Source of the DNA: an uncultured Verrucomicrobia subdivision 3 bacterium
GTDB lineage: Bacteria > Verrucomicrobiota > Verrucomicrobiia > Limisphaerales > UBA11358
Length of the DNA stretch: 64,000 nucleotides
Direction of reading: 5' to 3'
NCBI GenBank assembly: GCA_903865745.1
Contig: CAIPKV010000057.1
Location: 1-64,000 of the forward strand
The notes beneath the pieces are model-generated. The model ran no database searches. It was not told where the DNA came from and saw only the letters and a list, made by a program, of their open reading frames with translations. Position numbers and translations under genes: made by a program. The number at the start of each line of letters is the position of its first letter. Position 1 is the stretch's first letter. This document shows, one piece after another, positions 1 to 61,614 of the stretch.

Positions 1-630
1 AAAATTGCCGCGCGCGTCATGGCTGGTAAGACCTTAAAGGAACTGAATTTCACGGAAGAAATCTGGACGAAGTATTGGGCGGTAAAAGAATCCGTCTTCC
101 CGTTTAACAAATTCGTCGGCCAGGACATCTTGCTCTCCCCCGAGATGCGTTCCACCGGCGAAGTCATGGGGCTGGACGCCGACCTCGGCACGGCCTACGC
201 GAAATCGCAGATGGCCGCGAACTCCGCGCTGCCACTCAAGGGCAAGGTGTTTATCAGCGTCAGCGACCTGCACAAGCCGCACGTCGCCGAAGTCGCGAAA
301 TCTTTCGCCGACCTTGGCTTCGAACTCATTTCCACTGGTGGCACGGCGTCAGTTTTAGAAAAAGCCGGCTTGAAAGTGGAGCGTATCCTTAAATTACAGG
401 AAGGTCGCCCCAACGTAATTGACCTCCTTAAGAACAAAGAAATCCAGCTCGTCATCAATACGCCCAGCGGCGCGTCACCGCGGGCGGATGAAGTTAAAAT
501 TCGCACCACCGCCGTCTATACCGGCACACCCATCATGACCACGCTCTCGGGTGCAAAGGCCGCCGCGCTCGGCATCGCCGCCTTGAAAAAATCTGGCTAC
601 GCCGTCAAGACCGTGCAGGAGTATCATTGA
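1..630 (+). CDS. carB: Carbamoyl-phosphate synthase large subunit, C-terminal part (5' end outside window)
   Basis: The reading frame is open from base 1 (K-I-A-A-R-V-M-A-G-K) to the stop at 628-630, so only the C-terminal ~209 residues are present. The large subunit makes carbamoyl phosphate from ammonia, bicarbonate and two ATP for arginine and pyrimidine synthesis. What is visible is the tail of the second ATP-grasp half (FNKFVGQDILLSPEMRSTGE, then GLDADLGTAYAKSQMAA), followed by the MGS-like allosteric domain (KGKVFISVSDLHKP, ELISTGGTASVLE, INTPSGASPRAD). In characterised enzymes this domain binds regulators such as UMP, IMP or ornithine. The end at VQEYH is the normal family end, so the 3' end looks intact. 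Confidence 0.95.
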   Translation, partial: KIAARVMAGKTLKELNFTEEIWTKYWAVKESVFPFNKFVGQDILLSPEMRSTGEVMGLDADLGTAYAKSQMAANSALPLKGKVFISVSDLHKPHVAEVAKSFADLGFELISTGGTASVLEKAGLKVERILKLQEGRPNVIDLLKNKEIQLVINTPSGASPRADEVKIRTTAVYTGTPIMTTLSGAKAAALGIAALKKSGYAVKTVQEYH

Positions 631-680
631 TGCTTGCAAAACCATGGCGGTGAGGCTGGCATCGGTCATTACCTGCAAAA

Positions 681-985
681 CGTCGATTGGCGACGGCCAA
701 TTCACGAATGAACTCCCCAAAACGACGATTGATGCCATCAAAACGACGATGGGTGTCATAAAATTCAGGATTAATCCCAAAGAATCGGCGATTGGTGGTT
801 AGAAAACGACAATGAACAATCCCCAATCGACGGTGAACGCTTCCGAAACGACGATTGCCGAGGTCAAATCGACGATTAATTTGATTAAAATAACGATTAG
901 TCCGGGCGAAACGACGGTGGACGAGTAGATTTCGACGATTAAACCCCGTAAAAGCCTGAAGCTACTCCAAAAAACGACGGTTTAG
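681..985. repeat. 21-bp tandem array 1 (intergenic, upstream of recQ)
   Basis: This fills the 435-bp gap between carB and recQ. The core CGACGATT (usually preceded by AAA) recurs with its first base at 681, 723, 744, 786, 807, 828, 849, 870, 891, 912, 933 and 975. All of these positions differ by exact multiples of 21. Degenerate units fill 702, 765 and 954. The other ~11-13 bases of each unit vary. Plus-strand units contain in-frame stop codons, so the period is not kept by plus-strand coding. On the minus strand part of the array reads as heptads of the type NRRF-x-G-x, but I see no start or domain supporting a gene. Its end lies about 80 bp before the recQ start. Confidence 0.85.
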
Positions 986-1065
986 GCTGCGCCGCCGCCA
1001 AACCTAGTCTCCGCCGGGTGGCTAAGCTAAAGCTTGAACTCCCCCGCGCCTAACCTACTTTAGTT

Positions 1066-3237
1066 GTGTTGAAATCCGCCCCGCCACCGCTGCTCCCGTT
1101 GCTGAAGCAATACTTCGGATTCACCTCGTTCCGCCCGTTGCAGGAAGAAATCATCCGCGATTCGCTCGCGGGCAAAGATGTATTCGCCTTGCTGCCGACC
1201 GGTGGCGGCAAATCGCTCTGCTTTCAGCTACCCGCTCTCACGCGCACCGGCCTCACCGTCGTGGTTTCGCCCTTGATCGCTTTGATGAAAGATCAGGTGG
1301 ACGCGCTCCAAGCCGCCGGTGTGCCTGCGACTTTTCTAAATTCTTCGCTCGCTACCGAGGAATCGCGCAAGCGTCTTCGTGGTTTGCACCATGGCGAATT
1401 CCGCCTGCTCTACGTTGCGCCCGAGCGGCTGATGCTCTCCGGATTCCTGGCCGATTTGCAAAAGTGGCATGTGCAGCTCATCGCCATTGACGAAGCGCAT
1501 TGCATCAGCGAATGGGGTCACGATTTTCGTCCCGAATACCGGCAGATTTCCGATCTGCGCAAATTGTTTCCCGACGTGCCGTTCATGGCGCTCACCGCCA
1601 CCGCCACCGGCCGCGTGCGCGCGGACATCGTCACGCACTTGAAATTGCGCGAGCCGAAATGTTATGTCGCCAGCTTCAATCGTCCTAACCTGACTTACCG
1701 CGTGCTCGCCAAGAACAAGCCGTTTGATCAACTGTTTGAATTTCTACGCGCGCGGCCCAAGGAAAGCGGCATCGTCTATTGTCTCTCGCGCAAAGGTGCG
1801 GAAAGCGTGGCCGAACGGCTGAATGAAAATGGCATCAAGGCCCGGCCCTATCACGCCGGCCTCACGCCAAAGGAGCGCAGCGAGCATCAGGAGCTTTTCC
1901 TGCGCGACAACATCCGCGTCGTGTGCGCCACCATCGCCTTTGGCATGGGCATCAACAAGCCAAATGTCCGCTTCGTCGTGCACTACGATTTGCCGAAAAA
2001 TATCGAGGGGTATTATCAGGAAACCGGCCGTGCGGGCCGTGATGGTTTGCCGGGGGAATGCGTTTTGCTCTTCAGTCCCGGCGATGCAGTAAAGCAAACG
2101 ACGTTTATTGACGAGAAACCGAATCCGCAGGAGCGTCAGATTGCGCGCGAACAGTTACAGCAGATGGTGCATTACGCTGAATGTGCGAACTGCCGCCGGG
2201 TGGAACTGCTCGCTTATTTTGGCGAGGAATTTCCCGCCGCTGATTGTGGTGCGTGTGACAACTGTCTGTCCCCGCGCGCCACCTTCGACGGCACGCTGGC
2301 CGCGCAGAAATTTCTGTCGTGCGTATTTCGCATTCGTGAGAAAAATGGTTTTGGGGTCGGCCTGAATCACGTTATCGAAGTTCTTACTGGTGCGGACACG
2401 GAAAAAATCCGCAAGTGGGACCACTCGCAGCTTTCCACCTTTGGCATCGGCAAAGAACATAGCCGGTCCGAATGGGCGGCGATAGGCCGTGAACTCATCC
2501 GGCTCGGCCTGCTCCGGCAGACGGCAGAAAAATTCAGCGTGCTGGAAATCACCAATGCTGGCGCCGCCGCGCTGAAGGAGCGGAAGAAAATCAAGTTGAC
2601 CAAACCCGTCATAGCGTTGGAAACGAAGACGCGTCACGTCGGCGAAATCTCGTGCGATGAAGGGCTGTTCGAGCGTTTGCGCGAATTGCGCAAGCGGCTG
2701 GCCGACGAACACGACGTGCCGGCCTACATCGTTTTCTCCGACGTAGCCTTGCGGCAAATGGCGCGGAATTATCCGCAGACCGAGAGCGAATTCACCCGTA
2801 TTAGCGGCGTGGGCGAGAAGAAGCTGCGCGAGTACGGCGAAGTTTTTCTCGGTGAGATTGCGGCGCATCTGGCCACCAACGCCCGCCAGATATTCGCCGA
2901 GGAATCGTTTGTGGTACCCGTCGCCCAGCGTTCCAGTTTAGGCGATACCGCGCGCGAAACGCTTCGCCGCTTTCGCGCCGGCGATTCACCGACGGAAATT
3001 GCCGCGGCGCGCGGACTGGTGGTGGGCACTGTCTACGGGCATCTCGGCACCGCGATTGAAGTGGGCGAGGTTATTAATGTGTCACAACTTCTCGACGCCG
3101 AGGCGCAGGCGGAAATCGCCGCCGCCTTCCAGCGCACTGGCTGGGGGAACATTGTTGGGGCGCGCGAAATACTTGGCGAAAAATACGATTATGGCCTGCT
3201 GCGGATTTTCCGCGCAGCAGCGAACGTCAGAAAATGA
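1066..3237 (+). CDS. recQ: ATP-dependent DNA helicase RecQ
   Basis: A 3'-5' DNA helicase of recombination and replication-fork repair. Seen in order: Q-motif region (FTSFRPLQEEII), Walker A (LLPTGGGKS, residues ~42-50), Walker B DEAH box (IDEAHCISEWGHDFRPEY, ~141-158), motif VI (QETGRAGRDG), the RecQ zinc-binding cysteines (CANCRR ... CGACDNC, ~373-400), an RQC-like region, an HRDC domain (FERLRELRKRLADE ... ISGVGEKKLREYG, ~535-600) and a C-terminal helix-turn-helix segment (AGDSPTEIAAARGLVVGTV). The 723-aa length suits a full bacterial RecQ. The start is GTG at 1066, with TTG at 1069 as the alternative. The 21-bp array ends ~80 bp upstream. Confidence 0.97.
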   Translation: MLKSAPPPLLPLLKQYFGFTSFRPLQEEIIRDSLAGKDVFALLPTGGGKSLCFQLPALTRTGLTVVVSPLIALMKDQVDALQAAGVPATFLNSSLATEESRKRLRGLHHGEFRLLYVAPERLMLSGFLADLQKWHVQLIAIDEAHCISEWGHDFRPEYRQISDLRKLFPDVPFMALTATATGRVRADIVTHLKLREPKCYVASFNRPNLTYRVLAKNKPFDQLFEFLRARPKESGIVYCLSRKGAESVAERLNENGIKARPYHAGLTPKERSEHQELFLRDNIRVVCATIAFGMGINKPNVRFVVHYDLPKNIEGYYQETGRAGRDGLPGECVLLFSPGDAVKQTTFIDEKPNPQERQIAREQLQQMVHYAECANCRRVELLAYFGEEFPAADCGACDNCLSPRATFDGTLAAQKFLSCVFRIREKNGFGVGLNHVIEVLTGADTEKIRKWDHSQLSTFGIGKEHSRSEWAAIGRELIRLGLLRQTAEKFSVLEITNAGAAALKERKKIKLTKPVIALETKTRHVGEISCDEGLFERLRELRKRLADEHDVPAYIVFSDVALRQMARNYPQTESEFTRISGVGEKKLREYGEVFLGEIAAHLATNARQIFAEESFVVPVAQRSSLGDTARETLRRFRAGDSPTEIAAARGLVVGTVYGHLGTAIEVGEVINVSQLLDAEAQAEIAAAFQRTGWGNIVGAREILGEKYDYGLLRIFRAAANVRK

Positions 3238-16868: not shown

Positions 16869-16932
16869 GACGGGCCGCTACGGAGGCAAAAGCCTTTCCC
16901 TTCGGTTTTCGCGTATTTAGCGTATTTCGCGG

Positions 16933-18450
16933 TTAAATACTTTCCGGTTTGGTGCCGGTTTTACCCACCGGTCCGTGATGCAATTTTGAATGCCGGTGGC
17001 CGTACGCAAAATAGATTACCAAACCAATGGCCATCCAGACGATGAGCCGCGCCCAGGTATCGGCTGGCAGACCCGCCGCCATGAGGAAGATGCAGGAACC
17101 GACGCCGAGCGGGGCGCACAGCCAGACGGCGGGCGTGCGAAACGGTCGGGGGAGCTGCGGATCGGTGCAGCGCAAAACCAATACGCCGGCGCAGACGATG
17201 GCAAACGCCAGCAGTGTGCCGATGGAAACCAGTTCGCCCAGCAGGCCGATGGGGAATAGTCCGGCGATGAGCATGGCGACGATGCCGGTTAACAGTTGCG
17301 CGAGCCACGGGGTCCGGAACTTGGGATGCACGGCGCTGAATACCGGCGGCAGCAAGCCGTCCTTGGACATGGTGTAAAAAATCCGTGATTGGCCCAGCAA
17401 CAGCACCAGGATGACCGACGACAGGCCGGCGATGGCCCCGATTTTGATGAAATAGGTCAGCCACGTGAGCGATGAGCCGAGGGAATTGATGGCGAGCGCA
17501 ATCGGCGCGGGCACGTTGAGCTGGGAATAGTTGACGATGCCGGTCAGCACCAGCGAGACGGCGATGTAAAGAATGGTGCAGATGCCGAGTGAGCCGAGCA
17601 AACCGATGGGCATGTCGCGCTGCGGGCGTCTGGCTTCCTGCGCGGCGGTGGACACCGCGTCAAACCCGATGTAGGCGAAGAAAATCACGGCGGCACCGTG
17701 GATGACGCCGTGCCAGCCGAAATTGCCCGCCGCATCCGCCGGCGGCACGAACGGATGCCAGTTGGCGCGGTTGATGTAAGCCGCGCCAACGCCGATGAAG
17801 GTGAGGATGACGGCAACTTTCAAGGCGACGATGAAGTTGTTGAAATTAGCCGACTCTTTGATGCCGATGATAAGCAGGATGGTAATGACGCCGACGATGA
17901 GCATGGCTGGGACGTTCAGTACGGCTCCGGTGCTGACCCAGCCTTTGACGAAGAGCTGCCAGAGGTTCCACCATTGCGCGTCGGGCGGCGTGACGTGGTT
18001 GTAAGGCGCGGACGTAAACGCAGCGGGAATCGTGATGCCAAAGTCTTTTAGAAACGAAACGACGTAGCCGCTCCAGCCGACGGCGACGGTGGAGGCGGCG
18101 AAGAGATATTCCAGAATCAAATCCCAGCCGATAATCCAGGCAATTAATTCGCCGAGCGTCGCGTAGCCGTAAGTGTAAGCCGAGCCGGACAGGGGAATCA
18201 TCGAGGCAAACTCTGCGTAGCACAGCCCGGCAAACGCGCAGGCGATACCCGCGAAAATGAAGGACAGGACGATTGCCGGTCCGGCGTATTGCGCGGCCGC
18301 GTGGCCGGTCAGGACAAAAATGCCCGCACCGATGATGCCACCGATGCCGAGCGAGGTGAGGTTGACGGGGCCGAGTGCGCGTTTGAGGCTTTGGTCGTTG
18401 GTGGCCTCGGCCTGTAAATCGGCGGCGTGTTTGCGTCGGAAAAGTTTCAT
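16933..18450 (-). CDS. APC-family amino acid permease (cationic amino acid transporter type)
   Basis: Inner-membrane amino acid transporter, 505 aa, with about 12-13 hydrophobic segments. The TM1 signature (LTSLGIGGIIGAGIFVLTGH) and the conserved CYAEFASMIPLSGSAYTY in TM3 place it in the APC superfamily, closest in pattern to the CAT/YfnA group. A long loop with polar residues between TM3 and TM5 (PYNHVTPPDAQWWNLWQLFV) is also seen in that group. Substrate cannot be read from the sequence. It is a single-gene unit, 69 bp downstream of the DUF2339 gene on the same strand. Confidence 0.9.
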   Translation of the reverse strand: MKLFRRKHAADLQAEATNDQSLKRALGPVNLTSLGIGGIIGAGIFVLTGHAAAQYAGPAIVLSFIFAGIACAFAGLCYAEFASMIPLSGSAYTYGYATLGELIAWIIGWDLILEYLFAASTVAVGWSGYVVSFLKDFGITIPAAFTSAPYNHVTPPDAQWWNLWQLFVKGWVSTGAVLNVPAMLIVGVITILLIIGIKESANFNNFIVALKVAVILTFIGVGAAYINRANWHPFVPPADAAGNFGWHGVIHGAAVIFFAYIGFDAVSTAAQEARRPQRDMPIGLLGSLGICTILYIAVSLVLTGIVNYSQLNVPAPIALAINSLGSSLTWLTYFIKIGAIAGLSSVILVLLLGQSRIFYTMSKDGLLPPVFSAVHPKFRTPWLAQLLTGIVAMLIAGLFPIGLLGELVSIGTLLAFAIVCAGVLVLRCTDPQLPRPFRTPAVWLCAPLGVGSCIFLMAAGLPADTWARLIVWMAIGLVIYFAYGHRHSKLHHGPVGKTGTKPESI

Positions 18451-33100: not shown

Positions 33101-33345
33101 GGCAAGGGGGAGAATGCTTGGGGAAATGGGGAAAAGGCTTCGGAATACGGTGAAAACGCCTCGGGCAATGGGGAGGACAGTCCGGGAAACGGGGAGAGCC
33201 CCTCGGAATACGGTTGGAAGCCTCGGGGAAAAGGGGAGGATGCCCCGGAATTTGGGGAGAATGGTCCGGGCAAAGGGGAGAGTGGTTCGGAATTTGGGGA
33301 GAAGGCTTCGAGAAACGGGGAAAACGCCTCGGGCGGCGATGAAAT
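33101..33345 (+). repeat. 21-bp tandem array 3 (upstream of DUF58 gene)
   Basis: Eleven contiguous 21-bp units begin at 33101, 33122, 33143, 33164, 33185, 33206, 33227, 33248, 33269, 33290 and 33311, with a degraded twelfth at 33332. Typical unit content is GG-N-AA-N-GGGGAGAA then GCNTCG. In the second half units starting GGNAA and GAATT alternate, giving a 42-bp superperiod. In the plus frame they read as heptads such as GNGEKAS and EYGENAS. The array ends ~55 bp before the DUF58 start. Confidence 0.9.
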
Positions 33346-37569: not shown

Positions 37570-38089
37570 CGTGCTGCTTGTCGCCGCGCAGAGACTTTGT
37601 GCGCAGCTCGCGCCTGCTGAAGATTTTTTCAACAGCGGGGCGCAGTTTTACATTTCCAACAACGTACCAGCGGCGTTGGAGCGCGTGGAAATGGGTTTGA
37701 AAACTTATCCCAGTGACGAAAAGCTGAAAAAGCTGGATGAATTGCTTAAACAAAAACAGCAACAGCAGCAACAAAATCAGCAGCAACAAAATCAGCAAAA
37801 CCAATCACAGCAGCAAAAATCAGACAGCCAGAAAGACCAGCAGCAGCGAAAGCAAAATTCCCAAAATCAACCGAAGCCCGACGAGCAGCAACAAAAACAG
37901 GAACAGCAAAAATCCGATGGTAAAACCCCGGACAAACAAGATACTCAAGCCCAGCCGGTCAAGCCGGGAGAGATGACCAAGGATGAAGCCAAACGTCTAT
38001 TAGATGCGCAGAAGGAAAATGAACAGTTATTGCAGATGAAACCCCAGGCCAAGCCGCGTGATCCCGACCGACCGGTCAGGGATTGGTAA
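37541..38089 (+). CDS. batC: BatC-like TPR protein with long glutamine-rich tract
   Basis: 182 aa, starting inside batB. A signal peptide (LRLLISLSVLLVAAQRLCAQ) leads to a short TPR-like helix pair (EDFFNSGAQFYISNNVPAAL). From residue ~70 to ~140 it is dominated by Gln with Asn, Lys and Ser, a low-complexity tract of CAG/CAA codons. The conserved-looking tail MTKDEAKRLLDAQKENEQLL is followed by RDPDRPVRDW. It is the last gene of the bat operon, convergent with the sigma factor gene. Confidence 0.8.
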   Translation: MTLRLLISLSVLLVAAQRLCAQLAPAEDFFNSGAQFYISNNVPAALERVEMGLKTYPSDEKLKKLDELLKQKQQQQQQNQQQQNQQNQSQQQKSDSQKDQQQRKQNSQNQPKPDEQQQKQEQQKSDGKTPDKQDTQAQPVKPGEMTKDEAKRLLDAQKENEQLLQMKPQAKPRDPDRPVRDW

Positions 38090-61158: not shown

Positions 61159-61614
61159 ATGCCGCAATCACTCGCCAAGATTCTTGTGCATACGGTTTTT
61201 TCAACCAAAGACCGTCGCCCGTTTCTCCGCGACAAAATTCTGCGCGAAGAATTGCACCGCTACCTCGGCGGCATCCTGACCAATCTCGATTGCCAGCCCA
61301 TCATCATCGGTGGCGTGGAAGACCATGTCCACATTCTCTCCACGCTGTCGCGCACCTGTGAGGCGGCGGAAATGGTCAAAGAAGCCAAACGCGGCTCGTC
61401 GCTCTGGTTGAAAACCAAAAGCCCCGACCTGCATGATTTCGCGTGGCAGAATGGCTACGGCATATTCTCCATTGGATTTTCACAGGTCGAGACGCTGCGG
61501 AATTATATTGCCGGACAGGAGGAGCATCACCGGAAGGTTTCGTTTCAGGATGAGTTTCGGGAATTCCTGAAACGCTACGCCGTTGAATTTGACGAGCGTT
61601 ATGTGTGGGATTGA
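61159..61614 (+). mobile_element. RAYT-type (REP-associated Y1/HUH) transposase
   Basis: 151 aa from ATG 61159 (M-P-Q-S-L-A-K-I); an open frame upstream runs through the REP hairpins and is not part of the gene. HUH nuclease of the IS200-like Y1 group: LAKILVHTVFSTKDRRPFLR, IIGGVEDHVHILSTLSRTCE (H-x-H metal motif) and QVETLRNYIAGQEEHHRKVS with the single catalytic tyrosine. The tail EFREFLKRYAVEFDERYVWD is typical of REP-associated proteins. Its stop is followed within 3 bp by an inverted REP module, and matching modules lie on both sides. Confidence 0.9.

What the first reader, a model, noticed from the sequence alone, without database searches (positions are those of the whole stretch)
681..985. 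Array 1 keeps an exact 21-bp phase for 15 units without plus-strand coding capacity
The CGACGATT-type core is at 681 + 21n for n = 0 to 14 with three decayed units and no indel. Plus-strand units contain in-frame TAG/TAA (e.g. 921-930, 891-900), so protein reading in that direction cannot maintain the register. This argues for selection on DNA or RNA spacing, or very recent expansion followed only by substitutions.
Basis: seen in the sequence. Interest (0 to 1): 0.65.

Follow-up and report, generated by a model that had tools for sequence, protein, structure and literature searches.

The report
Phased 21-bp satellite arrays between genes
The repeat is real and is one of roughly 150 short DNA arrays scattered between ordinary genes of this uncultured bacterium, each with its own sequence but all locked to a step of two turns of the double helix, which suggests that the spacing itself is under selection or is set by an unknown copying process.

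Summary
Window 677-991 contains 15 units of 21 bp with core AAAACGACGATT, three of them decayed, and no indel. Core columns average 68% identity between units and spacer columns 27% (random), so this is not a fresh expansion that has only collected substitutions.

The array is not a one-off. In 749 kb of the same genome I found 31 arrays of period 21 (28) or 22 (3), against 5 with all other periods from 10 to 32: about 41 per Mb. Each array or small family has its own core; neighbours are ordinary housekeeping genes. Units are dyad-symmetric in 25 of 31 arrays. The same class (20 or 21 bp) occurs in an Acidobacteriota genome, but not in 400 kb of a congener.

Four arrays sharing the same ends are exactly 17, 13, 11 and 11 units long and one is a mosaic of two others, so turnover is in whole units. 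Array 2 (33104-33334) has same-core arrays beside the same gene in two congeners. Array 1 has no counterpart in relatives.

20- and 22-bp members, stops in most frames, and no excess of G-U pairs argue against a protein or an RNA hairpin. I favour helically phased DNA binding sites; a mutational satellite is a close rival.

The parts
677..991 (.). Array 1: 15 units of 21 bp, consensus AAAACGACGATT (core) plus a 9-bp variable spacer
698..718 (.). decayed unit 2 of array 1 (CAATTCACGAATGAACTCCCC)
761..781 (.). decayed unit 5 of array 1 (AAATTCAGGATTAATCCCAAA)
950..970 (.). decayed unit 14 of array 1 (AAAAGCCTGAAGCTACTCCAA); holds the minus-strand TAG at 962-964
605..961 (-). minus-strand open stretch with heptad (N/H)RRFxx(I/V), judged spurious: no ATG/GTG/TTG before 826, runs into carB
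1..630 (+). 3' part of carB (carbamoyl-phosphate synthase large chain), upstream neighbour
   Evidence: ORF; homologous ORF upstream of recQ in relatives; gene name from the finding and general knowledge
1026..1062 (+). promoter-like block GCTAAAGCTTGAACTCC...CCTACTTT, conserved upstream of recQ in relatives that lack the array
   Evidence: direct reading
1066..3237 (+). recQ, downstream neighbour
33104..33334 (.). Array 2: 11 units of 21 bp, core GGGGAGAA; same-core arrays near the same downstream gene in two congeners

Best explanation
Array 1 is one member of a genome-wide class of intergenic satellite arrays whose period is locked to two turns of B-DNA (20-22 bp, mostly 21). SHOWN: strict phase, conserved core with randomised spacer, dyad symmetry in most arrays, locus-specific cores, whole-unit gain, loss and mosaicism, and patchy presence between congeners. 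INFERRED: arrays grow and shrink by whole-unit recombination or slippage and are then kept in phase because a protein binds the core of each unit on one face of the helix, as a dimer at the dyad in most arrays. It would form a helically phased multimer, a local nucleoprotein patch or insulator between genes. Different arrays keep different cores, so the binder either reads symmetry and spacing more than sequence, or there are several binders.
For: 28 arrays of 21 bp and 3 of 22 bp against 5 of any other period from 10 to 32 in 749 kb; none in a 3rd-order Markov version of the same DNA. Column conservation is uneven beyond uniform decay in 20 of 31 arrays; dyad symmetry exceeds column shuffles (at most 5/100) in 25 of 31; the two halves of the array stay in register in 31 of 31. 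This is replicated in G014 (3 of 5 dyad) and in an Acidobacteriota genome (9 of 15 dyad, periods 20 and 21). Four arrays with shared ends are exactly 357, 273, 231 and 231 bp between the same boundaries. Array 2 and the arrays near the orthologous gene in G020 and G006 are each other's best matches among 53 arrays, in the same orientation, although the spacers do not align.
Against: No binding protein is identified. Most arrays are absent at orthologous positions of congeners, so they are dispensable. Array 1 is only weakly dyad-symmetric (0.45 against 0.38) and array 2 not at all. The core differs from array to array, which is odd for one DNA-binding protein. A DNA-level mutational process could give phase and palindromes without function.
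Confidence: 0.42

Rival explanations
1. Non-functional satellite: a mutational process that favours units of about two helical turns (slippage, unequal crossing-over or hairpin-primed copying of a local palindrome) creates, homogenises and loses the arrays. Phase is kept because only whole units are exchanged.
For: Locus-specific cores, whole-unit turnover and mosaicism, presence or absence between congeners, neighbours of no common function, and nearly perfect young copies in L141. Palindromes are good substrates for hairpin-assisted copying (established knowledge).
Against: In array 1 spacers are random (27% identity) while the core is 68% identical and no indel occurred. Uniform decay is rejected in 20 of 31 arrays. 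The core of array 2 is kept beside the same gene in two congeners while the spacers are not.
Confidence: 0.36
2. The arrays are transcribed and act as RNA: each unit is a small hairpin (stem 6-8, loop 3-4).
For: Several unit consensuses can be drawn as tetraloop hairpins, e.g. GCGGGGTATACCCCGC and GCTAAACACGTTTAGC.
Against: No overall excess of complementary changes within units (mean 0.005 against 0.000 at other centres). Mismatches are no more often G-U than A-C (113 against 129). An RNA has no reason to keep 20-22 nt. No Rfam family lies on an array in the sources searched.
Confidence: 0.09
3. Array 1 is a (degenerate) minus-strand gene for a heptad coiled-coil protein with repeat (N/H)RRFxx(I/V).
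For: One minus frame is open over units 1-13. The seventh residue is mostly hydrophobic. Third codon positions are slightly more variable (0.45 against 0.52 and 0.54).
Against: No ATG/GTG/TTG start before 826, stop in unit 14, no such array in relatives' carB-recQ gap. The class includes 20- and 22-bp arrays and arrays with stops in all six frames.
Confidence: 0.05
4. The array belongs to a known mobile or palindromic repeat family such as REP elements spread by RAYT transposases.
For: Palindromic units of about 21 bp. Some arrays share flanking repeats, and a shared left flank of 181 bp is repeated in the genome.
Against: The array 1 core is found nowhere else in the genome as more than chance-length pieces. 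Y1 transposase genes are fewer in the array-rich genome (2) than in the array-free congener (8). Arrays are tandem and locus-specific, not one dispersed sequence.
Confidence: 0.05

Closest known systems
Bacterial and archaeal satellites / minisatellites (Subirana and Messeguer 2019, PMC6749651)
   Same: Tandem intergenic arrays of at least four units, often with a unique sequence per array, whole-unit turnover
   Different: Their reference bacteria have at most 23 satellites per Mb. The first two of five parts of that paper, which are all I read, describe coding (multiple of 3) or microsatellite-derived repeats and no 20-22-bp dyad-symmetric class; here it is about 41 per Mb by a more permissive detector, nearly all 21 or 22 bp
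REP elements (GTAG/CGTC-tagged palindromes, PMC3733652, title and abstract only)
   Same: Small extragenic palindromes of about 20-40 bp
   Different: REPs are one sequence dispersed in many copies; here each array has its own core and copies are in tandem at fixed phase
Plasmid iterons and centromere-like arrays (general knowledge: about 20-22-bp iterons, F sopC, parC)
   Same: Direct repeats with helical phasing, sometimes with an internal dyad, bound by a protein multimer
   Different: One per replicon beside rep/par genes; here about 40 per Mb beside housekeeping genes with different cores
Multi-site operators of Lrp/AsnC-type regulators (general knowledge)
   Same: Palindromic sites on one face of the helix, DNA wrapping
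   Different: Few sites per operator and one consensus per protein; here 8-21 sites and a different core per array

Membership tests
Prokaryotic satellite (tandem repeat of 10-200 bp, 4 or more units) | at least 4 head-to-tail units of 10-200 bp | tested here: met
   15 units of 21 bp
Prokaryotic satellite (tandem repeat of 10-200 bp, 4 or more units) | internal regularity of the units | tested here: inconclusive
   Exact period, but TRF misses array 1 at score 40
REP / BIME (RAYT-associated) | one palindromic sequence dispersed at many loci | tested here: not met
   array 1 core unique in the genome
REP / BIME (RAYT-associated) | abundance tracks a Y1 transposase | tested here: not met
   2 Y1_Tnp in G000, 8 in array-free G001
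CRISPR array | repeats of 21 bp or more separated by unique spacers of similar size; cas genes | tested here: not met
   whole period is 20-22 bp with 9-10 bp spacers; neighbours examined are not cas genes
Iteron origin / centromere array | adjacent rep or par genes | tested here: not met
   neighbours carB, recQ; other arrays beside NAD-dependent DNA ligase, seryl-tRNA synthetase, release factor 1-type, transporter and peptidase genes
Iteron origin / centromere array | sequence-specific binding of an initiator or partition protein | not testable with these tools
   needs binding assays
Structured RNA of a known Rfam family | match to a covariance model | tested here: not met
   no match on the window arrays or on the other arrays searched
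Protein-coding heptad repeat | open frame with a start codon over all units | tested here: not met
   stop TAG 962-964, first start codon 826

The most novel reading that the evidence does not exclude
Some uncultured Verrucomicrobiota and Acidobacteriota carry over a hundred locus-specific arrays that share only two rules, a two-turn step and dyad symmetry. They serve as scaffolds for a bacterial chromatin-like protein that reads spacing and symmetry rather than a fixed sequence.
Probability: 0.18. Interest if true: 0.85.

Novelty: new variant of a known kind. Interest (0 to 1): 0.6.

Why it matters
Bacterial genomes are thought to hold few intergenic satellites. A class at about 40 per Mb, with one period fixed at two helical turns and symmetric units of ever-changing sequence, found in two phyla, would point either to an unknown nucleoid-binding system or to an unknown two-turn amplification process. 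Both can be tested in cultured relatives.

Tried and rejected
Dispersed copies of the array 1 core: none beyond chance-length pieces in the own genome; single pattern hits in G010 and G030 lie in unrelated sequence, the G010 one inside a gene, with no array seen. RAYT/Y1 transposases as the driver: counts do not follow the arrays. Rfam: nothing on arrays; one Acido-Lenti-1 hit is 0.9 kb from one array and was not seen at the others searched. Arm covariation as evidence for hairpins: no overall excess; a skewed A-C/G-T count in family A comes largely from one shared column of related copies. Position preference between gene orientations: too few arrays to separate from the background of large gaps. 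Autoregulated operators: neighbours examined are not regulators as a class. Literature: eight searches gave one relevant paper on satellites and one on REPs.

Full report
What was checked. The window lies in contig 57 of a 3.63-Mb genome (G000) of the verrucomicrobial order Limisphaerales, judged by its named relatives. Between the end of carB (stop at 630) and recQ (1066) there are 15 units of 21 bp at 677+21n. Fourteen of fifteen carry the core with at most four mismatches of eleven at exactly the expected phase, where about 0.12 would be expected.

Age and constraint. Core columns 1-11 average 68% identity between units and spacer columns 14-20 average 27%, i.e. random. A model in which all columns decay equally gives a column SD of 0.15 +/- 0.02; observed is 0.23 (0/100). 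So the array is not a young expansion. Spacers have been replaced completely while the phase never slipped by one base. With usual ratios of indels to substitutions (my assumption, 1:10 to 1:20) several indels would be expected in 315 bp.

Relatives at this locus. In same-genus genomes with carB next to recQ the gap has no array: L013, L014, L016, L017, L026 and L041 hold short unrelated sequence, L024 and L043 another gene. The recQ-proximal block with TTGAACTCC...CCTACTTT is kept in several of them and in others where a different gene lies upstream, so array 1 sits just upstream of a conserved promoter-like block. The core is not found as an array anywhere else in G000 or in 145 relatives.

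The wider class. Scanning 400 kb and then 749 kb of G000 for any period from 10 to 32 gave 36 arrays, 28 of period 21 and 3 of period 22, and none in a Markov version of the same DNA. That is about 41 per Mb, i.e. about 150 in the genome if the sample is fair. A congener, G001, has none of 20-22 bp in 400 kb. G014 has five in 140 kb, G020 one in 56 kb, G013 and G027 none in 91 and 61 kb. An Acidobacteriota genome (Pyrinomonadaceae, reached through L110) has 15 arrays of period 20 or 21 in 400 kb. One of its cores, TTTAAAT, forms arrays at three loci.

Anatomy of the class. Unit consensuses are often palindromic, e.g. GCGGGGTATACCCCGC, AAAGGGGTGCACCCCTTT, GCTAAACACGTTTAGC and TTCAGGACCGGTCCTGAA. 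Against shuffles of the columns the symmetry is significant (at most 5 of 100) in 25 of 31 arrays of G000, 9 of 15 in the Acidobacteriota genome and 3 of 5 in G014. Array 1 is weakly symmetric (1/100), array 2 is not. Within arrays, changes on the two arms are not coordinated overall and mismatches are not biased to G-U, which fits symmetric DNA sites better than RNA hairpins.

Turnover. Four arrays share nearly identical flanks (90-96% for the longest matches) but differ inside. Between the same boundaries they are exactly 17, 13, 11 and 11 units long. The left half of the longest resembles one sister and the right half another, unit by unit. So arrays gain, lose and exchange whole units.

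Conservation. Array 2 lies just upstream of a gene for a DUF58-like protein (my name from its sequence, not tested by an HMM). Arrays with the same GGGGA core lie near the orthologous gene in G020 and G006 and are best matches of one another among 53 arrays, on the same strand; 17 other relatives shown lack one. Orthologues of genes beside two other arrays lack arrays in nine congeners. Presence is patchy, but where kept, core and phase are kept and spacers are not.

Mechanism. I think whole-unit recombination makes and reshapes the arrays and that a DNA-binding protein, contacting one core per two helical turns, preserves core and phase. Anatomy and turnover are shown; the protein and any role are inferred. 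A purely mutational satellite is nearly as likely. Coding is disfavoured because sister arrays have periods of 20 and 22 and some have stops in all frames. RNA is disfavoured for the reasons above.

Comparison with known systems. By definition these are prokaryotic satellites. The survey in PMC6749651 (two of five parts read) lists at most 23 per Mb in reference bacteria, with a stricter definition of regularity than my detector, and in those parts no class with this period and symmetry. REPs, CRISPR arrays, iterons and partition sites each fail a tested defining feature. I therefore call it a new variant of a known kind. I cannot exclude a description in subscription literature.

Limits. Only about a fifth of the genome was scanned. 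Gene calls around arrays are long ORFs; Pfam gave families for 18 of 20 neighbours tried. The detector uses lags of one to three periods and so favours arrays in phase. Contig breaks could hide arrays in relatives, and the genomes are metagenome-assembled.

Noticed in passing
window 33104-33334: Second 21-bp array (core GGGGAGAA) with several open frames on both strands; same-core arrays near the same downstream gene in two congeners.
   Followed up: yes
window 16898-16933 and about 30 other places in G000: A dispersed repeat of about 30-40 bp, GCGTATTTCGGGTATTTCGCGGTAA, present in the flank of family A arrays and elsewhere.
   Followed up: partly
window 1026-1062; L022 (twice); L012, L015, L019: Conserved promoter-like block CTAAAGCTTGAACTCC...CCTACTTT upstream of recQ and, in L022, of another gene.
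   Followed up: no
L024 200-1540, L043 4640-6045, L022: In several relatives the recQ upstream region holds a secreted pectate-lyase-like gene (my reading of the sequence): the carB-recQ gap looks like an insertion hotspot.
   Followed up: no
window 37763-37845: Period-15 repeat CAGCAGCAACAAAAT, probably coding for a Gln/Asn-rich stretch.
   Followed up: no
window 61177-61518: Y1 (IS200-like) transposase domain, one of two in the genome.
   Followed up: no
L178 16534-16579: Acido-Lenti-1 RNA (Rfam RF01687) about 0.9 kb from an array.
   Followed up: partly
L231 about 1002-1375: A 22-bp array in the locus that holds part of the same left flank (90% over 77 bp) that accompanies 21-bp arrays elsewhere: the period may differ between copies.
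   Followed up: partly
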